Part shown: positions 42,300 to 49,805 of the stretch, one piece after another
Position numbering within the stretch: the first letter of the stretch is position 1
Layout of the letters: every line of letters starts with the position of its first letter
Assembly (NCBI RefSeq): GCF_023516495.1
Contig: NZ_JAMGBC010000001.1
Location: forward strand, 496,001-560,000
DNA length: 64,000 nucleotides
Direction of reading: 5' to 3'
Origin: Sphingomonas anseongensis
GTDB lineage: Bacteria > Pseudomonadota > Alphaproteobacteria > Sphingomonadales > Sphingomonadaceae
Program-made: the position numbers and the translations under genes
The notes under the pieces: generated by a model
The model's database searches: none
The model's input: the letters and a program-made list of their open reading frames with translations, nothing else
Told to the model about the DNA's origin: nothing

Positions 42300-42881
42300 A
42301 TGGGGACTAACGGGCCGTACATCGTCTTCTATGTCGTCGCGGCCGTGTTCGTCGCGTCCTCGCTGATCGGGCGCCGAACGCCCCTCAGCACCACCCTCAA
42401 GATGACCCTGGCGTGGATCGGGATATTTGCCGTCGCCTTCGCCCTTTTTGCCTTCCGCAACGACTTTGCATGGGTCGGCAAGCGGCTGTGGGCCGAAGCG
42501 ACCGGCAATCCCATCGTGGAAGGTTCAACGGTCAAGATTCCGATCAGCGAAGACGGTCACTACTGGGTCCAGGCCAGGCTCAACGGACAAAGCGTCCGCT
42601 TCATGGTGGACAGCGGCGCATCGACCACGACGATCGGCAGGGACACGGCGGCGACCGTCGGCGTGGCCGCGGAAGGCCAGAGGGTGATGGTGAACACGGC
42701 TAACGGCGCGGCCTGGATGACTCAGGCGACCGCCGACCGGCTCGAGGTCGGAACGATCGTCCGCAGCGACTTCCCGGTCGATATCAGTTCACAGGAGGAC
42801 ATGAACCTGCTGGGGATGAACTTCCTGTCCACGCTCCGCGGCTGGCGGGTCGAAGGCAACACTTTGGTGCTTCAGCCGTGA
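42300..42881 (+). CDS. Membrane-anchored retropepsin-like aspartic protease (clan AA), copy 1
   Basis: 193 residues: two hydrophobic segments (about 8-24 and 36-56), then a retropepsin-like domain with the active-site motif VDSGAS (Asp104) and the closing LGMNFLSTLRGWRVEGNTLVL. Single catalytic motif means it must dimerise. This is the family of bacterial membrane clan AA proteases (TIGR02281-like). It follows tatD and is followed by a paralogue whose GTG overlaps its stop. Substrate unknown. Confidence 0.9.
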   Translation: MGTNGPYIVFYVVAAVFVASSLIGRRTPLSTTLKMTLAWIGIFAVAFALFAFRNDFAWVGKRLWAEATGNPIVEGSTVKIPISEDGHYWVQARLNGQSVRFMVDSGASTTTIGRDTAATVGVAAEGQRVMVNTANGAAWMTQATADRLEVGTIVRSDFPVDISSQEDMNLLGMNFLSTLRGWRVEGNTLVLQP

Positions 42882-43465
42882 CCAACGGTTTGATGCTGGG
42901 CAGCCTCTACATCTTGATGGCGGTGATGCTCCTCCTCGGCTCGCTGATGTCGAGGCGCGAGCCTTTCGCTCGGGCGTTGACGCACATCCTCACGTGGGTC
43001 GCGATCTTCAGTAGCGGGTTCATCCTGTTCACTTTCCGGGATAATCTGGATTGGGTCTGGGAGCGCGCACGCTCCGAAATCACGGGCGAGCCGGTCCATC
43101 AGGGCCGCGAGCTCAGGATCCCGATGGCGATCGACGGGCATTTCTGGGTCGATGCGCGAGTGAACGGCCAAAAGGTTCGGTTCCTGGTGGACAGCGGAGC
43201 CACGATGACGACGATCGACCGTGAGGAAGCAGCCGAGGCGGGAGTCCAGGTCAGCGAGACGGCAAATCAGATCGTCAGGACGGGCAACGGCTTCGTGAAA
43301 GTGGCGACGGGGCGGGCGCGGCGGCTTCGGGTCGGGACTATCGAACGGGACAATTTCGCGCTTCACGTGACGGAAAATGACGATTTGAACGTGCTGGGAA
43401 TGAATTTCCTGTCGACACTTCGTCGCTGGGGGGTTGAGGGGCGTTGGCTGGTCCTCGTTCCCTGA
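42878..43465 (+). CDS. Membrane-anchored retropepsin-like aspartic protease, copy 2
   Basis: 195 residues, same plan as the upstream gene: two hydrophobic segments, then VDSGAT with Asp105, and LGMNFLSTLRRWGVEGRWLVL at the end (the LGMNFLSTLR block is identical). The two are a tandem duplication that has diverged in the N-terminal half. GTG start overlapping the stop of copy 1 by 4 bases, so they are probably made in similar amounts and could form a heterodimer. Confidence 0.9.
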   Translation: MTNGLMLGSLYILMAVMLLLGSLMSRREPFARALTHILTWVAIFSSGFILFTFRDNLDWVWERARSEITGEPVHQGRELRIPMAIDGHFWVDARVNGQKVRFLVDSGATMTTIDREEAAEAGVQVSETANQIVRTGNGFVKVATGRARRLRVGTIERDNFALHVTENDDLNVLGMNFLSTLRRWGVEGRWLVLVP

Positions 43466-43541: not shown

Positions 43542-44279
43542 ATGAACCTTGAGCGGCTCGTGGCCATCATGCGCCGTCTTCGCGACCCGGAGCGCGGCTG
43601 CGAATGGGATCTCAAGCAAAGCTTCGAGACCATCGCCCCCTACACGATCGAGGAAGCCTATGAGGTCGCCGATGCGATCGACCGCGGCGACATGGACGCG
43701 CTCGAGGATGAGCTTGGCGACCTGCAGCTCCAGGTCGTGTTCCACGCGCAAATGGCTGAGGAACGCGGGCTGTTCAGCCTCGATAACGTCATCGGCCGCA
43801 TCTGCGACAAGCTCGAGCGCAGGCACCCGCATATCTTTGGAAACGCTTCGGAAAGTCCCGGTTGGGACGCGATCAAGGCGGCCGAGCGCAAGCAGAAGCC
43901 GGACGACAGCGCGCTCGCCGGCGTGGCCAACACCCTTCCCGCTCTCGACCGGGCGATGAAGCTTCAGCGAAGGGCGGCTCGAACCGGTTTCGACTGGCCC
44001 GACAGCTCCGGAGCCCGGGCGAAGGTCAACGAGGAGCTTCAGGAGCTCGACGGCGAAACCGACCAGAAGCGCCGCACAGAGGAGCTCGGCGATCTATTGT
44101 TCGCGGTAGTAAACCTCGCACGACATCTCAAGATTGATCCGGAAGATGCTCTGCGTCATGCGAATCGTAAGTTCGAGAAAAGGTTTCGAGCGATTGAGAC
44201 TACTCCGGGCTTCGACACCATGAGCCTGGATGAGATGGAAGCGCTGTGGGTGAAGGCCAAGGCCGCTCAGAGCGACTGA
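43542..44279 (+). CDS. mazG: Nucleoside triphosphate pyrophosphohydrolase MazG
   Basis: 245-residue house-cleaning enzyme hydrolysing NTPs to NMPs and PPi. Two MazG domains: the first with ERGCEWDLKQSFETIAPYTIEEAYEVADAI and ELGDLQLQVVFHAQMAEE, the second with EELQELDGETDQKRRTEELGDLLF. The EExxE-type metal motifs are present in both. The 3' end overlaps the convergent hflX by 13 bases. Confidence 0.95.
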   Translation: MNLERLVAIMRRLRDPERGCEWDLKQSFETIAPYTIEEAYEVADAIDRGDMDALEDELGDLQLQVVFHAQMAEERGLFSLDNVIGRICDKLERRHPHIFGNASESPGWDAIKAAERKQKPDDSALAGVANTLPALDRAMKLQRRAARTGFDWPDSSGARAKVNEELQELDGETDQKRRTEELGDLLFAVVNLARHLKIDPEDALRHANRKFEKRFRAIETTPGFDTMSLDEMEALWVKAKAAQSD

Positions 44280-45577
44280 AACCGCGCCCAATTTTCCGGC
44301 GAAAGGCGAACCTGAAGGTGCAGATCCCCGTCGCGCATGTCCTGGCCGATGACGTCACCGCGCGCATGGAGCCAGGCAAGTTTCTCGCCGTCGCTTGCGG
44401 GCAGCTGGATCGAGTGGACGACATTGCCGCTTTGAAGCTGGTTCGAGATCCGCTGGCTGAGCACATCGAGGCCGAAGCCGGTCAGTGCCGAGATCGGCAC
44501 CACGTCCTCCCGGCGAGCGGCTTCCGCCTGAAGCGCCTCCCTGTCTTGCGGAGCCAGAAGGTCGACCTTGTTCCAGGCTTCAATCCGCGGCGGGGCGCCC
44601 TCGTCTTCCGGTCCGACACCTAATTGTGCAAGCACCTCGTCCACGTCCTCGCGCTGCGCTTCCCGGTCGGGGTGCGCCATGTCGCGGACGTGGACGAGCA
44701 GGTCGGCCGACGCCACCTCCTCCAAAGTCGCCCGGAATGCGGCGATGAGCTGCGTCGGAAGGTCGGACACGAAGCCCACCGTGTCCGACAGGATCGCCTT
44801 GTCGAATCCTGGCAGCTTGACGTCACGCATGGTGGGATCCAGCGTCGCAAACAGCATGTTCTCGGCGAGAACGTCACCACCGGTCATGCGATTGAAAAGC
44901 GTGGATTTCCCGGCATTCGTGTAGCCGACCAGCGCAATCACCGGCCACGGCGCACGCTGGCGCCGCCCTCGGTGAAGCGACCGGGTGCGCTTTACCTGCT
45001 CCAGCTCCCGCCGGATCCGAGCCATCCGGTCGCGGATAAGCCGCCTGTCCGCCTCGATCTGTGTTTCGCCAGGGCCGCCGAGGAAGCCGAAGCCGCCGCG
45101 CTGCCGCTCTAGGTGGGTCCAGCTCCTGACCAGGCGGCCCGCCTGATAATCGAGGTGGGCGAGCTCGACCTGGAGCCGCCCTTCCGAAGTCGCCGCCCTT
45201 TCCCCGAAAATCTCGAGGATGAGGCTGGTGCGGTCGATCACCTTCGTCCCGACCTGCTCCTCGAGCGATTTCTGCTGCACGGGGGTGAGCGGCGCGTCGA
45301 CGATGAGGAGGCCCGCTTCGCGCTCCTTGGCTTCCTCGGCGATCTCATCGATCTGGCCTTTGCCGATCAGGGTCGCGGGTTTGGGCGCGCGAAGCCTGAC
45401 GGTGCGCTGCGCCACGACGTCAATTCCGATCGCCTGCGCGAGCCCTACCGCCTCGTCGAGCTTCGCCTCCGAAGAGCGGCCGTTGCCCGGCCCGGTTCGC
45501 TCTATTCCGATCACGAATGCCCGTTCGCCTCGAGCGACGTCCAGAGCGCCGGCGCCGTCGGCGATTCTGACCGTCAT
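44267..45577 (-). CDS. hflX: GTPase HflX
   Basis: Ribosome-associated GTPase implicated in rescuing stalled or heat-damaged ribosomes; 436 residues. N-terminal HflX domain with the glycine-rich linker ([22 protein letters not shown]), then G1 [10 protein letters not shown]3 DTVGF and G4 NKVD. ATG overlaps the hfq stop (ATGA), the conserved hfq-hflX coupling. Confidence 0.96.
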
Positions 45578-46059
45578 TCCTCGTCCTCTTCGCCAGCGTC
45601 CATTCCGCCAAGCGAAAGCGGCTCGTCCGGCTGCATCGTGGAAATTGCGTGCTTGTAGACCAGTTGCACCTGCCCTCCCCGCTCCAGAAGTAGCGAGAAC
45701 TGATCATGGACTGTCACCAGCCCTTCCAACATGACGCCGTTGACCAGGAAGACCGTCATCCGCTTCCGTTCGCGCGCAGCAGCGGTCAGGAAGGCATCCT
45801 GCAACGCGGGATGACGGCTCCCTTCGGGCGCGCTCAGCTCGCCAAGGTCAAGCCCGGCCGCCGGCATGATGGTCGAGATGGAATGCTTGTAGACGAGCTG
45901 GTTCTGCCCCTCGCGTCTGAGGAGCAGCGAGAAGGAGTCGAACCAGGTTATGACGCCCTGGAGCTTGACGCCCTTCAACAGGAATAGGGTCAGCGGGGCT
46001 TTCGACCTGCGCGCGGTGTTAAGGAACTGATCCTGCAGGCTTACGGGCTTGGCTGCCAT
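45574..46059 (-). CDS. hfq: Double-length Hfq: two fused Sm-like RNA chaperone domains
   Basis: 161 residues, about twice the usual size. Domain 1 spans about residues 6-66 and domain 2 about 84-144, joined by a 17-residue linker; an acidic tail follows. Both keep the Sm1/Sm2 motifs: SLQDQFL and ALQDAFL (proximal Gln9, Gln87), FDSFSLLL and HDQFSLLL, and the YKH signature at 57-59 and 135-137 within VYKHSIST and VYKHAIST. The distal-face residues differ between domains (LLKGVKLQG versus LVNGVMLEG). A trimer would mimic the normal hexamer ring. Located between ntrX and hflX as expected for hfq. ATG 46059 chosen; a GTG codon precedes it. Confidence 0.95.
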
Positions 46060-46072
46060 CACGGACGGTAAG

Positions 46073-47452
46073 TCACTCCTCGTCCCGCTTGTCGCCGATC
46101 CCCAGCGCTTTGAGCTTCCGGTGGAGCGCTGACCGCTCCATCCCGATGAACGACGCTGTCCTCGAGATGTTGCCGGAAAACCGGCGGATCTGGATCCGCA
46201 GATATTCGCGCTCGAAGGATTCGCGAGCTTCGCGGAGCGGGCTGCCCATGATCGTCATCGCCTGGCTCGAAAGCCCGGTCGAGCCCTGGTTTTCGAGGAT
46301 TTCCGACGGGAGCATGTCGACTTCCAGCCGCTCGACCTGCTCGCACGGAGCGAGGATGACGGTCCGCTCGATGATGTTGCGAAGTTGCCGGACGTTTCCG
46401 GGCCATTCGTGCGCCTGGAGCGCAGCGATAGCCTCATCCGACAGCGCAGGAGTTACGATCCGTCGTTCGGCGGCGAACCTGGCGACGAAGTGATTGGCGA
46501 GCTCGGGTATGTCCTCGCGCCGCTCGCGGAGCGGAGGAAGCCGGACTGGAACCACGTTCAGCCGATAGAACAGGTCCTCGCGGAACCTCCCCTGCGCGAT
46601 TTCCTGCGCGAGGTCGCGGGAAGTCGCTGACAGAACGCGGACGTCGACCTTCACCGGCCGCTGGCCGCCGACTCGCTGGTAGCTCTGGTCGGTCAAAACC
46701 CGGAGGATCTTGCCCTGGGTAGTTAGCGGCATGTCGGCGATTTCGTCGAGAAACAGGGTTCCGCCGTGCGCTTGCTCCAGGAGGCCCGGCCGGCTCACGT
46801 CCTCATTGTCGAGGCCGAACAGCTCCTCCTCGACCCGTTCCGGCGTCATCATCGCCGCCGACACGACGACGAACGGGCCGTTGGCGCGAGTGCTCCAGGC
46901 ATGGATCGTTCGAGCCGCGACTTCCTTGCCCACCCCGGCGGGACCGGTGATCAGCACCCGGCTTCCGGTCGGGGCGACCCGCTTCAATGTTGCTCGAACC
47001 GTGTTGATCGCAACCGAATTGCCGCTCAGCACCTCATCGTGGACGACATGCTGGCGAAGGCTCTCGTTTTCGCGCCTCAGCCGGTCGGTCTCTGTGGCCC
47101 GCGAAACCAGGTGCAGCAGGTGCCCGGCCTCGAACGGCTTTTCGATAAAGTCGACCGCCCCTTCGCGAACCGCGGCAACGGCCGTGTCGAGGTTGCCGTG
47201 GCCGGAAATCATCAGCACCGGAAGGCTCGGGTCGTTGTGCTTGATCTGTTGGAGCAGTTGCAGGCCGTCGAGCCTTGAGCCCTGAAGCCATACGTCGAGG
47301 AGAACCAGCGATGGTCTGCGGTCCTTGATCGCATCAAGCGCAGCGCTGCTGTCGGCGGCGGCGCGAACGGCATAGCCTTCGTCCTGGAGGACACCGCTGA
47401 CCAGGTCGCGGATGTCTTCCTCGTCGTCGACCACAAGCACTTCAAGCGCCAT
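46073..47452 (-). CDS. ntrX: NtrC-family response regulator NtrX, without GAFTGA motif
   Basis: 459 residues: receiver domain with phospho-acceptor Asp53 (LVLLDVW), AAA+ domain with Walker A GPAGVGKE and Walker [13 protein letters not shown], and a Fis-type helix-turn-helix at the C-terminus ([23 protein letters not shown]). Where sigma-54 activators have GAFTGA this protein has [19 protein letters not shown], so it probably does not remodel sigma-54 polymerase. NtrX lacking GAFTGA is known in other alphaproteobacteria. Partner of NtrY encoded just upstream. GGGAG precedes the ATG. Confidence 0.95.
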
Positions 47453-47464
47453 CAGAAACGCTCC

Positions 47465-49723
47465 CTAAATATATGTTCCATCTTCACTTTCATTATCCGA
47501 TTGAGGCTCCGGGCCTTCCGCCTGCCGGTCCGCCAACTTGTCCACGTCGAATGCGATCCGCACATGCGTTCCGCCACCCTGGCGGTCGAGGAAAGCGATC
47601 TCGCCGCAATGCTCCTCGACGATCTTCTTGACGATCGCGAGGCCAAGCCCGGTCCCGCGGACGCGCGTCGTCATATAGGGCTCGGTAAGCCGCTCCCGGT
47701 CGGCCGGAAGGCCGATTCCCGTATCCATCACGTCGATGATCAGCTGGTCGCCGTCGCGGCGAAGGCGCAGCTCGACGCGGTCGCCGCTGAGATGATGCTC
47801 GCCCCGGCTACGCCTCGATTCAATGGCTTCAACGGCATTCTTCACGACGTTCGTCAGCGCCTGACCAAGCTGGCGGCGGTCGCAGATCATCGGGTAGTCG
47901 CCCGTCGGCGGCTCAAGCAGGAACTTGATTTCGGGATGCGCAACCTCGTGCAGGAACAGCGCCTGCCTGGCGATGTCGTGGACGTTCTCGCTGCGGAACA
48001 CCGGCTTCGGCATCCGCGCGAAGTTGGAGAATTCGTCGACCATTCTCCGAAGGTCGCCCACCTGCCGGACGATCGTGCCCGTCAGCCTGTCGAATGTCTC
48101 CGGATCCGATTGAACCTCTTTGCCGAAGCGCCTTTGGAGTCGCTCGGCTGCGAGCTGGATCGGGGTCAGCGGATTCTTGATTTCGTGCGCGACGCGACGG
48201 GCGATGTCTGACCAAGCCGCGCTCCGCTGGTCGGACAATTGGTCGGTGATGTCGTCAAAGGTCAGCACGGCGCCGTCCTGGTAGCGAACCCGCTTCACGG
48301 CGAGGGTGCGGCGCCCCGCCCCTGCCTCGACGTCGACGTTCGCCTCGCGTTCATCGCCGTGCATGAATTCTGCCAGCTCGGGCGACAGCTTCGAAAGGGC
48401 GGTGCCCTCGAGGGTTTCCTTCTCGGGCTTGAGAAGCGCGGCGGCCGACTTGTTGCTGAGCAGAATCTTATTCCGCGCATCCAGCGCGACGACGCCGGCA
48501 GTGACGCTGGACAGCACCGCCTCGATGAAGGCGCGGCGGGTATCGAGCTGCGTGTTCGCGGCGCGGAGCTCTCCCGTCTGTTCCTGAAGCCGGTCGGTCA
48601 TCTGGTTGAACGCATGGGCAAGCGTCTGGATTTCGTCCTCGGTTCGAGTGATCGGGACTCGCGCCGTGAAGTCGCCCTGCTCGATCCGGCCGGCGGCCTC
48701 GGCGAGCTGGCCGACCGGACGAACCAGCCGGTCGGCGAGACGCATCGCCGCCAGGATAGCGAGCGCGACGATGAGCAAGGCGCCAAGGAGGAGCGCGGCA
48801 TTGAACCGCAGCTGGTTCACGCGCGATCGGGCAAGAAGCGCCTGGTAGTCATGGAGAACGGCGTTAGCCCTGTCGATTTGCGCCTGGAAATCGGGATCGA
48901 AGACGCGTGCAGCGTACAAGTAGGTGGTCGGTCCATAATTGAGTCGGGTGAGCGCGCCGATCCTGTCTGACGAATTCACCGCGACAGTCTCTTTCGTCTG
49001 AAGGGCCGCAATCTTGTCGGGCGTGATCACTCGGTCCAGCGGGCGGTCGTAGGGATTGACCAGCACCAGCGTTCGGATTTGTTTATCGGGGCCGTAGGTG
49101 AAGATGATCGCCTCCGAGAGCTCCCGTTGGTAGACCTGAACCTTCGAGAACGCCTCGACGAAGCGTGGATCATCGATCGGAACCTGCTCCAGATAACCGG
49201 CGAGGTCCTTGCTCATCGCGACCGTGTTTGCCGACACCCGCTCGACCTCGTCATTGTAGGTCTCCCGAGCGAGCTGCACGGAATTCTCGAGCATGCCGCG
49301 AGCGCGGTCGGAGAACCAGAATTCCAGGCCGCTTTGGAAAAGAAGCGAGGCAAAGATCGCCACGAGCACGGTCGGAACCGCCGCGATGACCGAGAATTGG
49401 GCGACGAGCCGGGTGTGCAGCCGACCCGAACCGACCCCTCCCCTCTCCGCCCGCTGCATCGCGATCCGCCGAGCCAGAAGTACCATCAGGGCGATGGCCG
49501 GAATCAGGTTGGCGATCAGAAGCGCTGCGATCAGTGGCGCTTTCAGCAGTGATCCGGGTCTCGCGGGTCGCTGGAGCAGCCAGATGCTGAACGCGACAGT
49601 GGCTGCCAGGACCACAGCCGTGACAATTGCAGCATAGCGGTAGAATCGGCCGCTTTCGCGCTCGCGGGCCAGCCAGCTCCCCTTCTGCTCTCCGATTTCC
49701 GATTCGGTCGCGGCCACGTCCAT
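47465..49723 (-). CDS. ntrY: Sensor histidine kinase NtrY
   Basis: 752-residue membrane kinase: about four helices (two near residues 30-80, one near 100-120, one near 300), a large sensor loop, a HAMP segment (LVRPVGQLAEAAGRIEQGDF), a PAS domain (FIEAVLSSVTAGVVAL), HisKA with RRVAHEIKNPLTPI (His at about 512), and the ATP-binding G boxes (NVVKNAVEAIE, DTGIGLP, GTGLGLAIVKKI). It presumably phosphorylates NtrX; the pair is linked to nitrogen, redox or envelope control in relatives. ntrB and ntrC, often upstream, are absent here. The start is uncertain (ATG 49723; GTG 49744 in frame). Confidence 0.95.
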   Translation of the reverse strand: MDVAATESEIGEQKGSWLARERESGRFYRYAAIVTAVVLAATVAFSIWLLQRPARPGSLLKAPLIAALLIANLIPAIALMVLLARRIAMQRAERGGVGSGRLHTRLVAQFSVIAAVPTVLVAIFASLLFQSGLEFWFSDRARGMLENSVQLARETYNDEVERVSANTVAMSKDLAGYLEQVPIDDPRFVEAFSKVQVYQRELSEAIIFTYGPDKQIRTLVLVNPYDRPLDRVITPDKIAALQTKETVAVNSSDRIGALTRLNYGPTTYLYAARVFDPDFQAQIDRANAVLHDYQALLARSRVNQLRFNAALLLGALLIVALAILAAMRLADRLVRPVGQLAEAAGRIEQGDFTARVPITRTEDEIQTLAHAFNQMTDRLQEQTGELRAANTQLDTRRAFIEAVLSSVTAGVVALDARNKILLSNKSAAALLKPEKETLEGTALSKLSPELAEFMHGDEREANVDVEAGAGRRTLAVKRVRYQDGAVLTFDDITDQLSDQRSAAWSDIARRVAHEIKNPLTPIQLAAERLQRRFGKEVQSDPETFDRLTGTIVRQVGDLRRMVDEFSNFARMPKPVFRSENVHDIARQALFLHEVAHPEIKFLLEPPTGDYPMICDRRQLGQALTNVVKNAVEAIESRRSRGEHHLSGDRVELRLRRDGDQLIIDVMDTGIGLPADRERLTEPYMTTRVRGTGLGLAIVKKIVEEHCGEIAFLDRQGGGTHVRIAFDVDKLADRQAEGPEPQSDNESEDGTYI

Positions 49724-49805
49724 CAGTCTTGCCGTAGCACGCACCGTTGCAGAAACAACACAGTTCAGGCGAGCCGGGCTTCAGCTTGGCGCTGCTTTTC
49801 GTCCC

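What the first reader, a model, noticed from the sequence alone, without database searches (positions are those of the whole stretch)
45574..46059. Hfq with two fused Sm domains in one chain
The hfq gene encodes 161 residues with two complete Sm-like domains 78 residues apart, each with its own YKH motif and proximal Gln. The distal-face segments have diverged (LLKGVKLQG versus LVNGVMLEG), so a trimer would form a pseudo-hexamer with alternating RNA-binding faces. I recall double-length Hfq being noted in sphingomonads, so the fact may not be new, but the functional split between faces is little explored.
Basis: partly seen in the sequence, partly recalled or inferred. Interest (0 to 1): 0.7.

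Follow-up and report, generated by a model that had tools for sequence, protein, structure and literature searches.

The report
Double-length Hfq of sphingomonad bacteria
This bacterium makes a double-length version of the RNA-matchmaking protein Hfq; the doubling is a known trait of its family, and comparison with relatives shows that the two halves have settled into fixed, opposite charge patterns on one RNA-binding face.

Summary
On the minus strand, 45574-46059 encodes one unbroken 161-residue Hfq with two Sm domains. The architecture is not new: a 2010 paper reports it in Zymomonas and six other Sphingomonadales and already asks whether three chains make the ring (PMC2877685, passages).

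Added here: in the order sample 202 of 213 own-family genomes have two Hfq matches, 11 have one (69 of the 202 read in full). On an HflX+NtrX tree the 108 two-domain loci form one clade with the 11 single-domain ones outside: one fusion, no reversal seen. Of 58 aligned positions only two are completely fixed and different between halves: 28 (Lys/Asn) and 31 (Lys/Met), in 96 of 96 proteins (11 fast-evolving ones apart). Single-domain Hfqs are Asn28/Lys31 (43 of 43; 40 of 40 controls). Distal lysines per six domains stay six, but paired on alternate domains. Base-contacting residues remain in both halves, so 'alternating faces' is too strong.

A three-chain pseudo-hexamer is likely but unproven; no two-domain Hfq was found among solved structures.

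The parts
45574..46059 (-). hfq, 161 aa, two-domain Hfq (stop codon included)
45856..46038 (-). Sm domain 1 (PF17209 match, residues 8-68)
45805..45855 (-). inter-domain linker, about 17 residues, net charge -2
   Evidence: range over 108 loci 12-26 residues
45616..45804 (-). Sm domain 2 (PF17209 match, residues 86-148)
   Evidence: 82.7 bits; model helix 86-97 and five strands 100-144
45577..45615 (-). acidic C-terminal tail (ends GEEDEE), one per two Sm domains
45973..45975 (-). Lys codon at E. coli position 28 of domain 1 (residue 29); Lys in 96 of 96 non-fast two-domain proteins
45964..45966 (-). Lys codon at E. coli position 31 of domain 1 (residue 32); Lys in 96 of 96
45739..45741 (-). 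Asn codon at E. coli position 28 of domain 2 (residue 107); Asn in 96 of 96
45730..45732 (-). Met codon at E. coli position 31 of domain 2 (residue 110); Met in 96 of 96
46073..47452 (-). ntrX, nitrogen assimilation response regulator, upstream neighbour
   Evidence: NF051870, 742.9 bits, cut-off 600
44267..45577 (-). hflX, GTPase, downstream neighbour; its ATG overlaps the hfq stop (ATGA)
   Evidence: (TIGR03156, 449.4 bits, cut-off 216.75)
47465..49744 (-). sensor histidine kinase, NtrY by position only (no NCBIfam cut-off reached among the 25 of 82 rows shown)

Best explanation
This is the one Hfq found in this Sphingomonadaceae-type genome, made as one chain with two Sm domains that descend from a single in-frame tandem duplication inside that family (shown by sequence). 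Most likely three chains close into a six-domain ring of alternating D1 and D2 (inferred). The proximal U-binding pore is still contributed by all six domains, because Q8, F42, K56 and H57 stay in both halves. The distal and rim faces have become three-fold: D1 carries Lys28+Lys31 and the full basic rim, D2 carries Asn28+Met31 and, in most lineages, a weakened rim, so the six distal lysines of an ordinary ring are kept in number but gathered as pairs on alternate domains (residues shown; placement in a ring inferred). It works as an ordinary sRNA-mRNA matchmaker, with A-rich mRNA tracts held mainly by D1 phosphate contacts, and with one acidic tail per chain serving three strong rim patches (inferred).
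For: One gene, one frame, both domains; only Hfq match in the genome. 202 of 213 own-family genomes have two matches, 11 one. HflX+NtrX tree of 150 loci: 108 of 108 two-domain loci in one clade (support 0.833), 11 of 11 single-domain own-family loci outside it. D2 domains form one group, 107 of 107 (support 0.893). Positions 28 and 31 are the only fully fixed differences out of 58 (96 of 96 each side; singles 43 of 43 N28 and K31); 40 of 40 single-domain controls from 40 other alphaproteobacterial families are N28/K31; D2 is N28/M31 in 80 of 80 named genomes, which overlap the others in part. 21 positions have one residue in at least 97% of D1, D2 and singles, and include the base-contact residues. 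Model: both halves helix plus five strands, pLDDT 88.1, pTM 0.83, suggesting a defined D1-D2 placement. Literature passages: K31A lowers RIL-seq chimeras and R16A nearly abolishes them in E. coli (preprint PMC12262471); N28 backbone and I30 line an N-nucleotide pocket in simulations of Pseudomonas Hfq (PMC8121710); the acidic tail contacts R16/R17/R19/K47 in E. coli models (PMC5606850). Hfq acts with sRNA SuhB in Sphingopyxis granuli (PMC6563040); the Sphingopyxis genomes among the 80 have the two-domain form, though S. granuli itself was not looked at.
Against: K31A is reported as mild for regulation in E. coli. Rim weakening in D2 is not uniform: R16 is kept in 62 of 80 and K/R17 in 74 of 80 named genomes, while 17 is Asp/Glu in 29 of 50 other-genus D2s. 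This genome's own D2 has R17 and R19. D2 has Arg or Lys at position 35 in 25 of 50 other-genus sequences, a possible compensation. D1 domains are not recovered as one clean group in the domain tree (best overlap 0.897). Two fixed positions three residues apart could be drift frozen in one ancestor rather than selection.
Confidence: 0.72

Rival explanations
1. Six chains form a ring from one half only (D1, the conserved one), and D2 is a dangling or second-layer domain.
For: D2 diverges faster: mean identity to own-family single-domain Hfqs is 0.634 for D2 against 0.811 for D1 in other genera, 0.590 against 0.734 in the own genus.
Against: D2 keeps the pore and edge-strand residues Q8, F42, Q52, Y55, K56, H57, S60, T61 in at least 97% of sequences, which a free domain would not need; the two-domain model has pTM 0.83.
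Confidence: 0.12
2. The distal difference between halves has no function: it was fixed by chance in the ancestor of the fusion and is kept only because Hfq evolves slowly.
For: All two-domain genes share one origin, so 96 of 96 is not 96 independent events; K31A is described as mild in earlier E. coli reporter tests (PMC12262471 passages).
Against: In the fast branch Hfq has diverged strongly (D1 0.616, D2 0.530 mean identity while HflX+NtrX stays at 0.812), yet D1 keeps Lys28 in 11 of 11 and a basic residue (Arg) at 31 in 11 of 11, and D2 has a basic residue at 31 in only 2 of 11.
Confidence: 0.3
3. Two separate proteins of about 80 residues are made, by an internal start or by cleavage in the linker.
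For: This gene has a TTG with a 4-base Shine-Dalgarno match at the start of D2.
Against: Such a site is not conserved: matches of 5 or more bases in 2 of 108 loci, of 4 or more in 11 of 108. Cleavage could not be tested.
Confidence: 0.03

Closest known systems
Two-domain Hfq of Zymomonas mobilis (ZMO0347) and six other Sphingomonadales, PMC2877685
   Same: Two Sm-like domains in one Hfq chain; the same question of a three-chain ring is raised there (passages)
   Different: The passages seen name two sets of sites but no fixed difference between halves, no origin and no count over many genomes; the rest of the paper and its supplements were not read
NCBIfam NF010691 (PRK14091.1), RNA chaperone Hfq, 176 positions
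   Same: Aligns over both domains, residues 1-159 to profile 16-176
   Different: 213.1 bits, under the curated cut-off of 270, whereas the 8 other own-family genomes are over it
Caulobacter crescentus Hfq, 6gwk
   Different: Single domain, Asn28
Separate second hfq genes (for example Burkholderia hfq2, PMC3474761 passage; G385 here)
   Same: Two Sm domains per genome
   Different: Two genes, not one chain. That passage lists Novosphingobium aromaticivorans as having two hfq-like copies

Membership tests
Hfq (PF17209 / NF001602 / TIGR02383) | profile score over curated cut-off | tested here: met
   174.5 vs 27; 177.7 vs 95 and 170.3 vs 61.7
Hfq | Sm fold: N-terminal helix and five strands | tested here: met
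   predicted in both halves; domain 1 matches solved Hfqs, domain 2 was not searched alone
Hfq | proximal pore residues Q8, F42, K56, H57 | tested here: met
   present in both halves here; at least 97% in D1, D2 and singles outside the fast branch
Hfq | ring of six Sm domains | not testable with these tools
   no multimer prediction or measurement available
Hfq | binds sRNA and mRNA | not testable with these tools
   reported for Sphingopyxis granuli Hfq with SuhB (PMC6563040 passages), not for this protein
Two-domain Hfq of Sphingomonadaceae | two Hfq domains in one open frame, nested in the fused clade | tested here: met
NF010691 (PRK14091.1) as NCBI defines it | score of at least 270 bits | tested here: not met
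   213.1 bits; alignment covers both halves. Not filed under this model, only compared with it

The most novel reading that the evidence does not exclude
Fusion let Hfq break its six-fold symmetry under selection: paired Lys28/Lys31 on alternate domains make three strong distal sites spaced every second domain, so sphingomonad Hfq reads A-rich mRNA tracts with a doubled period (six instead of three nucleotides) while keeping a six-fold pore for sRNA 3' ends. This would be a natural, family-wide experiment in which each Hfq face can be tested on half the ring.
Probability: 0.3. Interest if true: 0.65.

Novelty: new member of a known kind. Interest (0 to 1): 0.42.

Why it matters
The architecture itself is known. 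What matters is that one chain ties together two Hfq halves with fixed, opposite distal charge in all 42 two-domain genera of the order sample (one or more loci each), so questions that are hard in a homohexamer (how many distal or rim sites must work, whether alternate sites suffice) can be tested by changing one half of one gene. No description of this distal split turned up in the listings of the keyword searches made here or in the passages read; the library holds open-licence papers only.

Tried and rejected
Two proteins by internal start: rejected for lack of conservation. Fusion elsewhere: of 387 class genomes one outside the own family (G385) had two matches, and in the order outside the own family only G001; both are separate places, not one frame. 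Of 199 phylum genomes, matches spanning both halves of NF010691 were listed only for the 9 own-family members (56 genomes had no match, the rest matched about one half per place). Loss of D2 as the origin of single-domain own-family genomes: rejected, all 11 branch outside the fused clade and carry N28. That tree has weak deep nodes (0.415, 0.487), and one locus from another family (L005) falls beside a single-domain own-family one.

Limits of the counts. Of the 202 own-family genomes with two matches I read 69 in full (19 own genus, 50 others); the other loci come. Rows dropped: L079 (frameshift in half 1) from the 47 own-genus proteins, giving 46; the 11 fast-branch proteins were counted apart; L019 dropped as a duplicate of L101. 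The 40 controls were taken from the best-scoring rows, so they lean to canonical Hfqs, and one of them (G354) is also among the 43 singles. Domain 1 of the 80 named loci cannot count for Lys28, since the scan pattern itself held KGVKLQG. In the domain tree D2 is a clean group, D1 is not (overlap of the best split 0.897) and singles nearly (0.977); without positions 28, 31 and 63 the overlaps fall to 0.907 (D2), 0.664 (D1) and 0.721 (singles). Solved structures by sequence: 37 distinct sequences of 63-114 residues, none long enough for two Hfq domains. The 50 rows shown by the fold comparison cover domain 1 only; domain 2 was not predicted alone.

Full report
What is there. The gene lies on the minus strand at 45574-46059 and reads as one frame of 161 residues; frame 1 of the plus strand there has two stops. 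Pfam Hfq matches twice. Upstream are ntrX and a sensor kinase that is NtrY by position, downstream hflX, whose ATG overlaps the hfq stop codon. It is the only Hfq match in this 2.2 Mb genome.

Distribution and origin. Of 296 genomes of the order, 213 belong to the own family (counted by hand from the table): 202 have two Hfq matches and 11 have one. Of 83 genomes in seven other families, 76 have one match, 6 none, and one (G001) two, at separate places. In the class (387 genomes), one genome outside the own family has two matches, again at separate places. In the phylum (199 genomes) matches spanning both halves of the NCBIfam two-domain model were listed only for own-family members. I read 108 two-domain loci, 58 of the own genus and 50 from 41 other genera, which together cover all 42 two-domain genera of the order sample, and all 11 single-domain own-family loci. 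Of the 202 order-sample genomes, 69 are among these. A tree of HflX and NtrX fragments puts the 108 in one clade (0.833) and the 11 outside it. D2 domains group together, 107 of 107 (0.893); D1 domains do not separate as cleanly. So there was one fusion, with no reversal in this sample.

Difference between halves. In E. coli numbering, with 96 proteins (one frameshifted locus dropped, 11 fast-evolving ones apart), D1 is Lys28 and Lys31 in 96 of 96, D2 is Asn28 and Met31 in 96 of 96, and single-domain Hfqs are Asn28 and Lys31 in 43 of 43. Forty single-domain controls from 40 other alphaproteobacterial families agree, 40 of 40; they were picked from the best-scoring rows. No other position of 58 is completely fixed and different; position 63 comes near (Met 83 of 96, Gln 95 of 96). 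Twenty-one positions have the same residue in at least 97% of D1, D2 and singles, among them Q8, Y/F25, G29, I/V30, L32, F42, Q52, K56, H57 and T61. Each chain thus holds two distal lysines at 28/31, both in D1; six domains hold six, as in an ordinary ring, but paired on alternate domains.

Rim and tail. D1 keeps about three basic residues at 16, 17 and 19, like single-domain Hfqs; D2 keeps 1.0 (other genera) to 1.28 (own genus) on average. The loss is uneven: in 80 named genomes D2 keeps R16 in 62 and K/R17 in 74, and mainly loses 19. This genome's own D2 has R17 and R19. The C-terminal tail is acidic (median net charge -4 in the own genus, -6 in others), much as in single-domain Hfqs (-4, 41 sequences), while the linker is near neutral (median -1 and 0). 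In E. coli models the acidic tip contacts R16, R17, R19 and K47 and competes with RNA there (PMC5606850, passages). One tail and one strong rim per chain is therefore a consistent picture, but it is inferred.

Function in relatives. Passages in PMC6563040 say that sRNA SuhB silences thnR with Hfq in Sphingopyxis granuli; the Sphingopyxis loci are two-domain, S. granuli itself was not examined. PMC2877685 (passages) links Zymomonas hfq to inhibitor tolerance, states the two-domain architecture there and in six other Sphingomonadales, and asks about a three-chain ring. So a double-length Hfq very probably works as a riboregulator, and the architecture was known by 2010. A 2002 survey by Sun and others may have said so earlier; that is recalled and was not seen.

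A fast-evolving side branch. Eleven own-genus genomes have Hfqs at 42-54% identity to this one, although HflX+NtrX are as alike within the branch (0.812) as within the rest of the genus (0.802); Hfq falls to 0.616 (D1) and 0.530 (D2). Their tails are short and uncharged (2-6 residues), position 38 of D1 is Gly instead of Trp in 11 of 11, and His57 of D1 is Gln in 5 of 11. Even so D1 keeps Lys28 in 11 of 11 and has Arg at 31 in 11 of 11. This argues against pure drift for the distal pair, though the branch is one lineage.

Verdict. The protein is a member of Hfq and of the known two-domain sphingomonad form. The likely mechanism is a three-chain pseudo-hexamer with a six-fold pore and a three-fold distal charge pattern; the sequence steps are shown, the assembly and RNA effects are inferred.

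Noticed in passing
L080-L090 (11 own-genus genomes): A branch with Hfq-specific fast divergence: acidic tail lost, Trp38 lost, His57 of D1 replaced by Gln in 5 of 11, while flanking HflX and NtrX evolve at the ordinary pace.
   Followed up: partly
window 45574-45600: The codons of the acidic tail (GAAGAGGACGAGGAA) are purine-rich just before the overlapping hflX ATG and may double as its ribosome-binding site.
   Followed up: no
L112-L145, several loci: In the part that was shown, several other genera have a longer open frame upstream of D1 with a recurring LSARP-like motif, which suggests an N-terminal extension not seen in this gene.
   Followed up: no
window 42300-43465, + strand: Two adjacent reading frames of 193 and 195 aa resemble each other and share a VDSGA motif, perhaps tandem aspartic-protease-like paralogues (judged by eye).
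   Followed up: no
L079 (G303): The hfq of one less complete own-genus genome is broken by a frameshift inside D1; may be a sequencing error.
   Followed up: no
L235, L237 (G385): An alphaproteobacterium outside the order has two separate Hfq genes, one of them divergent (71.4 bits).
   Followed up: no
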